Shown: one piece after another, positions 57,846 to 60,482 of the stretch
Layout: each line of letters opens with the position of its first letter
How positions within the stretch are numbered: position 1 is the stretch's first letter
Origin: Bifidobacterium breve
GTDB taxonomy: Bacteria; Actinomycetota; Actinomycetes; Nanopelagicales; Nanopelagicaceae
DNA length: 64,000 bases
Reading direction: 5' to 3'
Assembly: GCA_945860245.1 (NCBI GenBank)
Contig: CAMAPO010000004.1
Location: 30,930 to 94,929, forward strand
The notes under the pieces: model-generated
Database searches by the model: none
What the model saw: only the letters and a program-made list of their open reading frames with translations
Told to the model about the DNA's origin: nothing
Position numbers and translations under genes: made by a program

Positions 57846-57888
57846 AGTGGGCCCAGACGGGCTCGAACCGTCGACCCACGGATTAAAA
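57846..57888 (+). repeat. Direct repeat (att-like), orphan tRNA-Lys 3' half
   Basis: agtgggcccagacgggctcgaaccgtcgacccacggattaaaa; identical to 60408-60450; no 5' tRNA half follows. Confidence 0.95.
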
Positions 57889-58063
57889 TTCTGACCTAAT
57901 AAGTTCTTAAGCGTATCTTTAAGTGCCATACGTCCCACCGTTAAGAGTGACTCACGCCTGGAAGTTTCTGGTAGAACCACTAGATGTTAGGGAAGTGTTG
58001 AGTAAGGTGAAGAGATGAAGTTAGTAACCATCAATTGCTGTTAAGAGGCTTTGGAGTTAGCGA

Positions 58064-58399
58064 ATGAGTGATTGGCTAGATGCTATTGCCCAAGGTAATT
58101 TTAATTTAACTATGCTTGACACTAATGGTGAACCTATGTACTACCTAACCCGCAGGGAAGAGGGGGTCCACTTCACTTTTCAATATTTTGCACCATCTGG
58201 GTCCAATCTGCCTGACTTAGAAGTTGATTTTGATATTGCAGCAGCAAATATTCCAAATGTTTTCAGGCGTTATGGAATTGACCCAAACTTAGACTTTATT
58301 AAAGGATTTGAAGTCATTTCAAGTAGTGGCCAAGGTGAAGAGTTTGGTAAGGCTATTACCGATGGATTAATACCCATCGAAAATGCGCACTATTGGTAA
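58064..58399 (+). CDS. Acidic hypothetical protein, 111 aa
   Basis: ORF with SD-like GGAG upstream; MSDWLDAIAQGNFNLTMLDTNGEPMYYLTRREEGVHFTFQYF...; no family recognised. Confidence 0.7.
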   Translation: MSDWLDAIAQGNFNLTMLDTNGEPMYYLTRREEGVHFTFQYFAPSGSNLPDLEVDFDIAAANIPNVFRRYGIDPNLDFIKGFEVISSSGQGEEFGKAITDGLIPIENAHYW

Positions 58400-58476
58400 C
58401 GCATCAAATAAGAGTAATTTTACCTATCTTTTCTCTCAAAGCACTGTCAACATAGTAAGTGAAGGGAAGGTTTCTA

Positions 58477-59211
58477 ATGTGTAAGGTGGGAGAACGAGAA
58501 TTTTGCATAGTGCTTGGAGAAGACTCGAGTAAGTGGAGTAAGTATTGCCCGCTGCCTGTACCCACTTTCTTTGATGGCGCGGTAGAAAGTTTTTCACGAG
58601 CTGTTAGCGAGTTAACTAAAGGCAATAAGAAAGAATCGTTAGAGGCCCTTACTGCTTCTAATGCTGCGGAAGTTGGCAAATTTTATATTGACCACGGTCA
58701 GCAAAGTGCTTATTTTAGAGTTACCAATAGGAAGGAAGTCGACAATGCTAACCGGCTTGAAAAAAAATTAAACCTCAGTCCACGTGATAAACCTGCAATA
58801 ACAAAAGAGGTTTTTAAACGAGATTTCTACCGTTGTCGTTACTGTAATTTACGAATTATTACTGGTGAGGTTTTTAGTGAATACAGTCGCATTGTTGGGT
58901 CAGATATTTTCTCTGACGAAAGGGAGAATACTAAACGGAATGGATTAACACTCGGACTTCGGGGAGTTGCAGACCACGTAGAACCGTATGCTTTAGGGGC
59001 AGGAACGGAACTAGATAATTTAGTTACTAGTTGTTACTCGTGTAACTTTGGTAAAGCGGGATATACATTAGACCAACTAAAGATCGAGGACCCCCGCTCG
59101 AGACAGCCTAAGGATGATGGTTGGAAAGGCTTAACAAATTATTTACCTGCTTTAAAATTATTGGGCGTATTAACTAATTCCGAGGTCAACGAGCCTAGGC
59201 AAAGGTCATAG
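58477..59211 (+). CDS. HNH endonuclease
   Basis: RDFYRCRYCNLRII...RGVADHVEPYALGAGTELDNLVTSCYSCNFGKAGYT (CxxC, DHV, N, CxxCN-GK). ATG at 58477 follows GGGAAGG; the ORF track uses upstream GTG at 58459. Confidence 0.88.
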   Translation: MCKVGEREFCIVLGEDSSKWSKYCPLPVPTFFDGAVESFSRAVSELTKGNKKESLEALTASNAAEVGKFYIDHGQQSAYFRVTNRKEVDNANRLEKKLNLSPRDKPAITKEVFKRDFYRCRYCNLRIITGEVFSEYSRIVGSDIFSDERENTKRNGLTLGLRGVADHVEPYALGAGTELDNLVTSCYSCNFGKAGYTLDQLKIEDPRSRQPKDDGWKGLTNYLPALKLLGVLTNSEVNEPRQRS

Positions 59212-59230
59212 AGTTGAGTAAGGTCAAGAG

Positions 59231-59710
59231 ATGAAGAGAGATACACAATTGGTCGGAGCTGCAGGTGAGCACCTAGTTTTATCTCGTCTACTGAACCGCC
59301 AATATTTGGCAGCGCAGGCGCCACCTGGCGCAGCCAAAGTAGATATCTTGGTCAACCACCTTGATGACAAGCCTCCGCGTCTAATTCAGGTCAAAACAAT
59401 TACTGGCAAGAACATCAATAATGGCTGGCATATGAGTGAGAAGCACGAAAAAATGGTAGACCCAAACATTTTCTATTGTTTCGTGGCCCTTGGAGATATC
59501 GACAGTGACGTTTATGTTATTCCATCCGAGATTGTTGCGACTGTTGTAACCGATGAAATGATTAAATGGCTGGCAACGCCGGGCGCTAAAGGACAACAGC
59601 GCAACTATACAAAAATGCGGCGGATCCAAAATCAATATAAAGACAAGTTTGATTCCGCCCCAGATGGGTGGATAGAGCAGTATCTTGAAAAATGGGAACT
59701 ATTAGGGTGA
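59231..59710 (+). CDS. PD-(D/E)XK-like putative nuclease, paralog 1
   Basis: LVGAAGEHLVLSRLL (Glu), KVDILV (Asp), LIQVKT (QxK) arrangement; 159 aa. Confidence 0.75.
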   Translation: MKRDTQLVGAAGEHLVLSRLLNRQYLAAQAPPGAAKVDILVNHLDDKPPRLIQVKTITGKNINNGWHMSEKHEKMVDPNIFYCFVALGDIDSDVYVIPSEIVATVVTDEMIKWLATPGAKGQQRNYTKMRRIQNQYKDKFDSAPDGWIEQYLEKWELLG

Positions 59711-59714
59711 AGAG

Positions 59715-60194
59715 ATGAATCGTGACAAGCAACTTGTAGGTGCTGCAGGTGAGCATCTAGTTTTATCAAGACTACTAGCAAAGGGAATTCTTGCTTCTCA
59801 GGCGCCGCGGGGCGTAAGAAAAGCGGATATTTTGGTTAATCCACTTGATGGAGGGCGACCGGTATTGATTCAAGTTAAGACCACCTCCGGTTCAAGGACT
59901 CGAGTTGGCTGGCCTATGAATGTCAAGGACGAAACAATTACAGAAATTGATTTGTTTTACTGTTTCGTAAATCTTGGAGAAGACAATCCACAGGTGTATG
60001 TGATTCCCGCCAAAATAGTTGCAAAAGTAATCAAAAGAGGACACCAGACTTGGCTGAAGACGCCAGGAAGTAAGGGTCAAAAGCACAACGAGACCAATAT
60101 GAGATGGATAAGCAATTCGTTTCGATTGAAGAATGAATATACGCCTGATGGCTGGATGGATAAATACCTAGAGAATTGGGAATTATTGGGATGA
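59715..60194 (+). CDS. PD-(D/E)XK-like putative nuclease, paralog 2
   Basis: Same length and motifs as paralog 1 (LVGAAGEHLVLSRLL, KADILV, LIQVKT); about 56% identical in my ungapped hand alignment; starts 4 bp after the paralog 1 stop. Confidence 0.75.
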   Translation: MNRDKQLVGAAGEHLVLSRLLAKGILASQAPRGVRKADILVNPLDGGRPVLIQVKTTSGSRTRVGWPMNVKDETITEIDLFYCFVNLGEDNPQVYVIPAKIVAKVIKRGHQTWLKTPGSKGQKHNETNMRWISNSFRLKNEYTPDGWMDKYLENWELLG

Positions 60195-60210
60195 AAAGAA
60201 AATTAACTCC

Positions 60211-60396
60211 TTGACTAAGCCAATACCGCTCAAAAAAAGTAAAGAAGTTCAAATGATAGAAGAACCGATGATGTTAAATACGCCCTGCACAAAGTTTGAC
60301 TTTACAAAGATGGATGACGACAGAGTCATTACCTTTGCTATTCTCCATTTGGAAGGAGCAGCAGAGGAAGTACACAGGCGTGGTCTGGCCTACTAA
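60211..60396 (+). CDS. Small hypothetical protein (61 aa or shorter)
   Basis: TTG-start ORF MTKPIPLKKSKEVQMIEEPMMLNTPCTKFDFTKMDDDRVITFAILHLEGAAEEVHRRGLAY; possible ATG start at 60255. Marginal support. Confidence 0.4.
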   Translation: MTKPIPLKKSKEVQMIEEPMMLNTPCTKFDFTKMDDDRVITFAILHLEGAAEEVHRRGLAY

Positions 60397-60407
60397 AAGG
60401 ACTGATG

Positions 60408-60450
60408 AGTGGGCCCAGACGGGCTCGAACCGTCGACCCACGGATTAAAA
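60408..60450 (+). repeat. Direct repeat (att-like) within tRNA-Lys 3' half
   Basis: Identical to 57846-57888. Confidence 0.95.
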
Positions 60451-60482
60451 GTCCGTTGCTCTACCGACTGAGCTATAGGCCC
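60410..60482 (-). tRNA. tRNA-Lys(UUU)
   Basis: Reverse strand GGGCCTATAGCTCAGTCGGTAGAGCAACGGACTTTTAATCCGTGGGTCGACGGTTCGAGCCCGTCTGGGCCCA folds as a cloverleaf; anticodon TTT. Confidence 0.96.

What the first reader, a model, noticed from the sequence alone, without database searches (positions are those of the whole stretch)
57846..60450. Minimal nuclease-carrying island integrated at tRNA-Lys(UUU), bounded by 43-bp perfect repeats and lacking an integrase
Seen: a 43-bp perfect direct repeat at 57846-57888 and 60408-60450. The right copy is the 3' half, up to the anticodon loop, of an intact tRNA-Lys; the left copy is an orphan. Established: tyrosine recombinases integrate elements into tRNA genes, restoring the tRNA at one end and leaving a displaced 3' fragment at the other. 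Inference: about 2.6 kb was inserted between the NiCoT and YrdC genes, and all recognisable cargo is nuclease-like. With no recombinase present it is either a trans-mobilised satellite or a decayed element retained for its cargo. An HNH plus two PD-(D/E)XK-like genes in a tRNA hotspot fits a candidate compact defence or mobile-interference module that I cannot match to a named system.
Basis: partly seen in the sequence, partly recalled or inferred. Interest (0 to 1): 0.85.

Follow-up and report, generated by a model that had tools for sequence, protein, structure and literature searches.

The report
Integrase-less nuclease island in tRNA-Lys
A freshwater actinobacterium carries a small foreign DNA insert in a lysine tRNA gene that holds DNA-cutting enzyme genes but lacks the enzyme that inserted it; one end matches a family of tRNA-targeting mobile elements, mapped here, in which full-size members carry that enzyme and cut-down members do not.

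Summary
In detail: an exact 43-bp direct repeat (57846-57888, 60408-60450), the right copy being the 3' part of an intact tRNA-Lys(UUU), with 2.5 kb between, no recombinase gene, an HNH gene and two PD-(D/E)XK paralogues. Related genomes show single-tRNA empty sites and other cargo at the same tRNA, including an integrase-bearing 9-kb element with the same repeat (G293). The new result is that about 120 bp just inside the orphan repeat is a conserved 'E-end'. A model built from three copies found it in other genera; all 15 hits with E<0.02 abut a tRNA 3' half cut at the anticodon loop. In integrase-bearing members (G176 on one contig; three in G263 across contigs; sister element G285) it is the end far from the integrase and usually carries 11-bp-spaced GTGTTAG repeats, also present beside the integrase: probable attP arms. 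G026 holds a 0.73-kb copy keeping both ends of G285's element (96%) but no integrase. The window island keeps a degenerate E-end and lacks the integrase-side arms, so it is an integrase-less derivative of this family, probably stranded or hybrid, with cargo of defence-island type. New variant of tRNA islands; function untested.

The parts
57846..57888 (.). orphan attachment repeat (displaced 3' part of tRNA-Lys, cut at the anticodon loop), attL side
   Evidence: exact 43-bp repeat; same 44-45 bp orphan in G293, G010, G296
57889..58009 (+). conserved 'E-end': probable attP arm on the integrase-distal side
   Evidence: 88% identical over 99 bp to G296; homologous to G263 tRNA-Asn end; order-wide model hits next to tRNA halves
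57907..57917 (+). TTAAGCGTATC motif, conserved in nearly all E-ends
   Evidence: alignment of 15 E-ends
57984..58005 (+). two degenerate copies, 11 bp apart, of the GTGTTAG arm-type repeat (ATGTTAGGGAA, GTGTTGAGTAA)
   Evidence: canonical copies in G263, G176, G252
57994..58020 (+). 27-bp direct repeat, copy 1; with copy 2 it brackets orf111-HNH (possible nested insertion or deletion junction)
   Evidence: 25/27 identical to 59210-59236
58064..58399 (+). orf111: small accessory protein of unknown function; weak relatives in 13 other genomes of the genus
   Evidence: adjacent to an HNH gene also in G026
58459..59211 (+). HNH endonuclease-like protein, 250 aa (Met at 58477 is an alternative start)
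   Evidence: Pfam HNH above cut-off; PHROG HNH families
59210..59236 (+). 27-bp direct repeat, copy 2 (overlaps PDa leader and start)
59231..59710 (+). PDa: PD-(D/E)XK-fold protein, 159 aa
   Evidence: invariant E13, D38, Q53-V-K55 in 15 relatives
59715..60194 (+). PDb: paralogue of PDa, 159 aa
   Evidence: AlphaFold pLDDT 87.7; Foldseek best hit I-Ssp6803I, also SPARDA and Hjc
60211..60396 (+). orf61: doubtful 61-aa ORF, TTG start
   Evidence: no relative in 135 genus genomes
60408..60450 (.). right copy of the 43-bp repeat, inside tRNA-Lys (attR side); no arm-type repeats in the 210 bp to its left
60409..60482 (-). intact tRNA-Lys(UUU)
   Evidence: ARAGORN, Rfam tRNA E=9.5e-16

Best explanation
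The segment is an integrase-less derivative of a family of tyrosine-integrase elements that insert at the anticodon loop of tRNA genes in freshwater Nanopelagicales-type Actinobacteria. In autonomous members the order is intact tRNA, integrase-side arm repeats, integrase gene, cargo, conserved E-end, displaced tRNA 3' half. Inferred mechanism: the integrase binds the arm repeats on both sides of the element's attachment site and recombines its core with the tRNA; the element's copy restores the tRNA and the host's 3' half is pushed to the far end. Here that product is visible at tRNA-Lys(UUU), but the integrase gene and its side arm are gone, while a degenerate E-end and four or five cargo genes remain. 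Recombination among islands accreted at the same tRNA, or internal deletion, probably removed the integrase part, leaving a stranded or hybrid island. Its cargo, an HNH nuclease with a small partner and two PD-(D/E)XK nucleases, is the kind found in restriction and defence islands and most likely attacks or restricts foreign DNA. Shown: repeat, fold class, E-end family, empty and occupied relatives. Inferred: arm function, route of integrase loss, cargo role.
For: Observation. Empty sites: EamA within 1-35 bp of a single tRNA-Lys in G006, G040, G043, G052, G223, G224, G225, G226, G295. Clean pair of complete genomes: G296 carries a 2.5-kb integrase-less insert in tRNA-Lys whose flanks are 96.8% and 99.6% identical to empty G295. 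Same site with integrase: G293, 44-bp orphan 9 kb from an identical tRNA-Lys, 381-aa integrase beside the tRNA. E-end: 88% identical between window and G296 over 99 bp, while flanking genes are 67-77% identical. A three-sequence model finds further copies at E down to 1e-9; all 15 hits with E<0.02 abut tRNA 3' halves. Integrase link: G263 integrases next to tRNA-Thr, -Val, -Asn are 59-60% identical to the first of them, and the same three tRNAs have orphan halves with E-ends; complete elements on one contig in G176 (integrase 62%) and G285 (42%). Integrase-less relatives: G026 0.73 kb keeps both ends of the G285 element at 96% plus the integrase C-terminus; G021 about 1.1 kb; G323 with integrase fragment. 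PD: conserved motif and confident fold, PDa-PDb dN/dS about 0.16 with dS near saturation, neighbours read as restriction-modification genes in G010, G119/G106 and G166.
Against: The window's arm repeats are degenerate and none is found on the tRNA side, so membership rests on one end. G296 also keeps only the E-end without the GTGTTAG repeats. No integrase of the family has been seen at tRNA-Lys(UUU) itself; the one found there (G293) has a different end sequence. The PD gene also sits beside tRNA-Leu in another integrase family (G228), so the right half may have another origin. The assembly is fragmented and 93% complete, so an integrase elsewhere cannot be excluded. Defence function rests on association only; PADLOC is negative at useful thresholds.
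Confidence: 0.72

Rival explanations
1. Trans-mobilised satellite: the island is still mobile and is excised and integrated by an integrase supplied by another element, as MITEs use transposases or CALIN cassettes use integron integrases.
For: Integrase-less versions recur (window, G296, G021, G026); G026 keeps both element ends at 96% identity to integrase-bearing G285; the G296 insert lies in flanks 97-99.6% identical to an empty genome, so it was gained or lost recently; the E-end is more conserved than flanking genes.
Against: The window lacks arm repeats on the tRNA side and its E-end repeats are degenerate; no E-end-type integrase is known in the host genome.
Confidence: 0.2
2. Composite: two different islands accreted at tRNA-Lys. 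The left half (E-end, HNH) came from the E-end family, the right half (PD genes next to the tRNA) from an element like that of IMCC26103 (G228), and a deletion fused them.
For: PD lies about 216 bp from tRNA-Leu in G228, as PDb lies about 214 bp from tRNA-Lys here; PD is also in an island with the same tRNA-Lys repeat but a different end in G010; a 27-bp direct repeat marks a possible junction inside the island; tandem accretion at this tRNA is seen in G296.
Against: The 214 bp beside the tRNA show no similarity to G228; only the PD coding region aligns (72%).
Confidence: 0.3
3. Selfish or homing cargo: HNH and PD proteins act as homing-type endonucleases that spread themselves between islands rather than defend the host.
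For: Foldseek best match of PDb is the homing endonuclease I-Ssp6803I (E=3e-4); the PD gene is duplicated in tandem; orf111-HNH is bracketed by a 27-bp direct repeat.
Against: PD genes sit beside restriction-modification-type genes in several genomes, not in introns or inteins; SPARDA, Hjc and EcoRV folds also match.
Confidence: 0.15
4. Chance or assembly artefact: the repeat is a tRNA pseudogene or misjoin, not an insertion.
For: Fragmented assembly (47 contigs); contigs of other genomes often end in tRNA repeats.
Against: Whole island plus both flanks lie on one 95-kb contig; the same structure occurs in complete genomes (G296, G228); exact repeat with conserved E-end.
Confidence: 0.03

Closest known systems
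tRNA-gene genomic islands as defined in Islander (PMC4383910)
   Same: intact tRNA plus same-orientation 3' fragment bounding foreign DNA; tandem accretion
   Different: Islander requires an integrase in the island; this one has none
Actinobacteriophage tyrosine-integrase att sites, e.g. phage Boilgate at M. smegmatis attB-4, tRNA-Lys-TTT (PMC10865867)
   Same: 43-bp common core at the same tRNA isotype, anticodon-loop crossover, pairs of arm-type sites flanking the core
   Different: no phage genes here; arm motif and integrase clade are different and known only from this survey
Tycheposons (as described in PMC10872708)
   Same: tRNA-bordered cargo elements of streamlined aquatic bacteria with a tyrosine recombinase
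   Different: 4-200 kb with a recombinase; the window island is 2.5 kb without one
Non-autonomous 'hitchers' such as MITEs and CALIN cassette arrays (PMC11389934)
   Same: deletion derivatives that keep recombination sites but lost the enzyme gene (best shown by G026 versus G285)
   Different: site is a tRNA integrase att, not transposon ends or attC; movement in trans not shown
PD-(D/E)XK nucleases: I-Ssp6803I, SPARDA DREN, Hjc
   Same: fold and E-D-QxK motif of PDa and PDb
   Different: 12-23% identity in the structural matches; no Pfam, NCBIfam or PADLOC family covers them
Septu PtuB HNH proteins
   Same: weak HNH-region similarity (E=0.003)
   Different: no PtuA ATPase, below any useful cut-off

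Membership tests
Islander-type tRNA genomic island | intact tRNA and a displaced same-orientation 3' fragment at the ends | tested here: met
Islander-type tRNA genomic island | integrase gene inside the island | tested here: not met
   no PF00589 match in the island; only two Xer-like matches in the genome
Islander-type tRNA genomic island | empty site in relatives | tested here: met
   nine genomes with EamA directly beside a single tRNA-Lys; G295/G296 pair
E-end integrase family defined here | E-end directly inside the orphan tRNA 3' half | tested here: met
E-end integrase family defined here | canonical GTGTTAG repeats, 11 bp spacing, at the E-end | tested here: inconclusive
   two degenerate copies at 57984 and 57995
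E-end integrase family defined here | arm repeats and integrase beside the intact tRNA | tested here: not met
   none in 60195-60407
Tycheposon | tyrosine recombinase, 4-200 kb | tested here: not met
   2.5 kb, no recombinase
AICE / phage satellite (PICI-like) | replication, transfer or packaging genes | tested here: not met
   no such match for any island ORF
Restriction-modification system | methyltransferase partner | tested here: not met
   none in the island
Septu | PtuA ATPase plus PtuB HNH | tested here: not met
   no ATPase; PtuB hit E=0.003 only
PD-(D/E)XK superfamily | fold and catalytic motif | tested here: met
   invariant E13, D38, Q53, K55; model and Foldseek
PD-(D/E)XK superfamily | nuclease activity | not testable with these tools
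   needs biochemistry

The most novel reading that the evidence does not exclude
Streamlined freshwater Actinobacteria host a family of tRNA-anticodon-loop integrases whose short integrase-less derivatives (0.7-2.6 kb, often one gene each) are mobilised in trans and stack at tRNA genes, working as a MITE- or cassette-like gene-shuttling system built on tRNA att sites; the window island is one such cassette carrying nucleases.
Probability: 0.3. Interest if true: 0.7.

Novelty: new variant of a known kind. Interest (0 to 1): 0.5.

Why it matters
It is a standing question how genomes of about 1.3 Mb with few visible mobile elements keep exchanging genes. A conserved attachment-arm signature makes integrase-less islands findable at any tRNA, ties them to a defined integrase clade, and gives matched autonomous and deleted copies (G285 versus G026) and a matched empty and filled pair of complete genomes (G295 versus G296) on which mobilisation in trans can be tested directly. 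It also places an uncharacterised PD-(D/E)XK family repeatedly in restriction- and defence-type islands.

Tried and rejected
A named defence system: PADLOC, Pfam and NCBIfam gave only HNH above threshold. A coding origin of the E-end: an ORF runs through it on the minus strand in window and G296, but the differences show no codon periodicity (my reading). A conserved fold of the E-end as single-stranded DNA (attC-like): no stable fold in the window copy, z=0.41, weak in G296, z=-1.81. Exact E-end pattern in viral contigs: 0 hits. PD relatives in viral contigs and phages: none; one plasmid. Integrase relatives in viral contigs and phages: at most about 31% identity in the best-scoring hits, so no phage owner found. 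Similarity of the 214 bp beside tRNA-Lys to the G228 right end: none. E-end on G293 or G010 islands at the same tRNA: absent, different end sequences.

Full report
Observation. The 43-bp exact repeat at 57846-57888 and 60408-60450 is present as described; a probe from it is found nowhere else in the window. The right copy lies in an intact tRNA-Lys(UUU) and starts at the anticodon loop. The interval has the lowest GC of any stretch of its size in the window. Its ORFs are orf111, an HNH protein, two 159-aa paralogues and a doubtful 61-aa ORF. There is no recombinase; the genome assembly (93% complete) has only two matches to PF00589, with the size and housekeeping neighbours of XerC and XerD.

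Empty and occupied sites. In nine genomes of the genus an EamA transporter gene lies within 1-35 bp of a single tRNA-Lys, with YrdC nearby on the other side. The window lacks EamA, so the left flank was also rearranged. A 31-base att probe finds two or more copies on one contig only in G000, G276, G293 and G296 among 135 genus genomes. In G276 both are full tRNAs about 5 kb apart with a 1,560-aa protein between. G293 carries a 9-kb element at an identical tRNA-Lys with a 381-aa tyrosine integrase directly beside the tRNA and a 44-bp orphan repeat at the far end. G010 has an island with the same repeat and restriction-type cargo including a PD gene. G296, a complete genome, has two single-gene inserts without integrase, separated by a full tRNA-Lys copy; its flanks are 96.8% and 99.6% identical to the empty site of G295, also complete. 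This pair shows gain or loss at precisely this site with no integrase in the insert.

The E-end. The 99 bp from the orphan repeat inwards are 88% identical between the window and G296, although NiCoT, TPR, YrdC and GT genes are 77, 76, 69 and 67% identical at DNA level and the cargo differs completely. G263 has a homologous stretch directly next to an orphan tRNA-Asn half. A sequence-only model from these three copies, run over 296 genomes of the order, gave further hits in several genera. All 15 hits with E<0.02 (the three seeds included), and 17 of all 23, directly abut a tRNA 3' half, mostly beginning at tRNA position 27-31, of Lys(UUU), Lys(CUU), Asn, Thr, Val, Tyr and Arg genes (three of the 15, in G231, G110 and G101, match known tRNAs less well, 79-90%, isotype not resolved, and in G252 only 22 bp match). 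The alignment shows an AAGCGT/ACGCGT motif about 24 bp in, a second such motif 34 bp further in several copies, and in most copies one to three GTGTTAG repeats at 11-bp spacing. The window copy has the first motif and two degenerate repeats at 57984 and 57995.

Link to an integrase. G263 has three integrases of one clade (59-60% identical) beside intact tRNA-Thr, -Val and -Asn, each followed by two GTGTTAG-type repeats and then the tRNA, and orphan halves of the same three tRNAs with E-ends on other contigs; joining these into three elements is inference across contig gaps. G176 has a whole element on one contig: tRNA-Lys(CUU), repeats, integrase (62% to G263), excisionase-like gene, E-end and tRNA half, 4.9 kb in all. 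G285 has a sister element at tRNA-Arg (integrase 42%, different repeat motif) of 7.7 kb. Direct repeats on both sides of a core are what lambda-type integrases use as arm sites; that reading is inference from established knowledge and from the mycobacteriophage Boilgate attP, which shares a 43-bp core with tRNA-Lys-TTT and has flanking arm-type sites (PMC10865867).

Integrase-less members. G026 has a 729-bp unit at tRNA-Arg whose first 205 and last 182 bp are 95.6% and 96.7% identical to the two ends of the G285 element, including the last codons of the integrase; the interior is one small ORF. G021 has an E-end insert of about 1.1 kb at tRNA-Val with an acetyltransferase-like gene. G323 has a remnant with the last third of the integrase between two tRNA-Lys(CUU) halves, each with an E-end. 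So deletion derivatives form in this family, and some keep both ends. The window island, like G296 and G021, has an E-end but no repeats on the tRNA side. It is therefore best called a derivative whose integrase half has been lost or replaced, not a proven mobile satellite.

Cargo. PDa and PDb belong to a family with invariant E13, D38, Q53, V54 and K55 in 15 relatives. The AlphaFold model of PDb is confident (mean pLDDT 87.7) and its best PDB matches are I-Ssp6803I, SPARDA nuclease domains and Hjc, all PD-(D/E)XK nucleases. PDa and PDb show dN/dS about 0.16, with near-saturated dS. Neighbours of PD relatives include a 5mC methyltransferase with a second gene that looks like a type II endonuclease (G119, G106), DndB-like plus HNH plus 5mC methyltransferase (G166), a methylase-like protein with GIY-YIG (G010), and a helicase-like island with integrase at tRNA-Leu in IMCC26103 (G228) (these gene names are my reading of the translations, not family searches). 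In IMCC26103 the PD gene lies at about the same distance from its tRNA as PDb here. orf111 has weak relatives in 13 further genomes and is next to an HNH gene in G026. A 27-bp direct repeat (25/27) brackets orf111-HNH, which may mark a nested insertion or a fusion point. Defence is the most likely role by association; a homing role is possible.

Verdict. The family is a new variant of a known kind (tRNA islands with anticodon-loop att sites); no paper describing it in these bacteria was found in the searches made, but subscription literature was not searchable. That the organism is a Nanopelagicales (acI, Planktophila-like) bacterium is my knowledge of strain IMCC26103, which the tools place in the same genus, not a tool result.

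Noticed in passing
L106:1758-4728 (IMCC26103, G228 73757-76728): A 2.9-kb integrase-less segment bounded by tRNA-Leu(UAA) repeats, next to a 12.9-kb integrase-bearing island; inside it two similar stretches of about 115 bp seem to hold an inverted partial tRNA-Leu, one beside each gene, as if two single-gene cassettes were joined.
   Followed up: partly
L180:7968-10578 (G296): Two single-gene inserts in tandem at tRNA-Lys, separated by a second full tRNA-Lys gene with a different upstream flank, so the insert brought a complete extra tRNA gene.
   Followed up: partly
L253:801-1529 (G026) and L254:2567-10246 (G285): 729-bp deletion derivative and its 7.7-kb integrase-bearing counterpart at tRNA-Arg(ACG); ends 96% identical between different genomes; arm repeats here read TGAAAGCAAAA instead of GTGTTAG.
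   Followed up: yes
L092, L093 (Rhodobacterales): PD-(D/E)XK relatives sit directly after what look like dnaG and rpoD genes in two genomes, an unusual fixed chromosomal position for this family.
   Followed up: no
L070 (G010:C124), L129, L133: A shared set of island genes (VWA-like lipoprotein, membrane protein, in two of them a nuclease-like protein) recurs in variable regions of several genomes; in G010 it is next to a tRNA-Lys copy.
   Followed up: no
window:57829-57845: The EamA transporter gene present between NiCoT and tRNA-Lys in relatives is missing from the window; NiCoT is followed by only 17 bp before the orphan repeat.
   Followed up: partly
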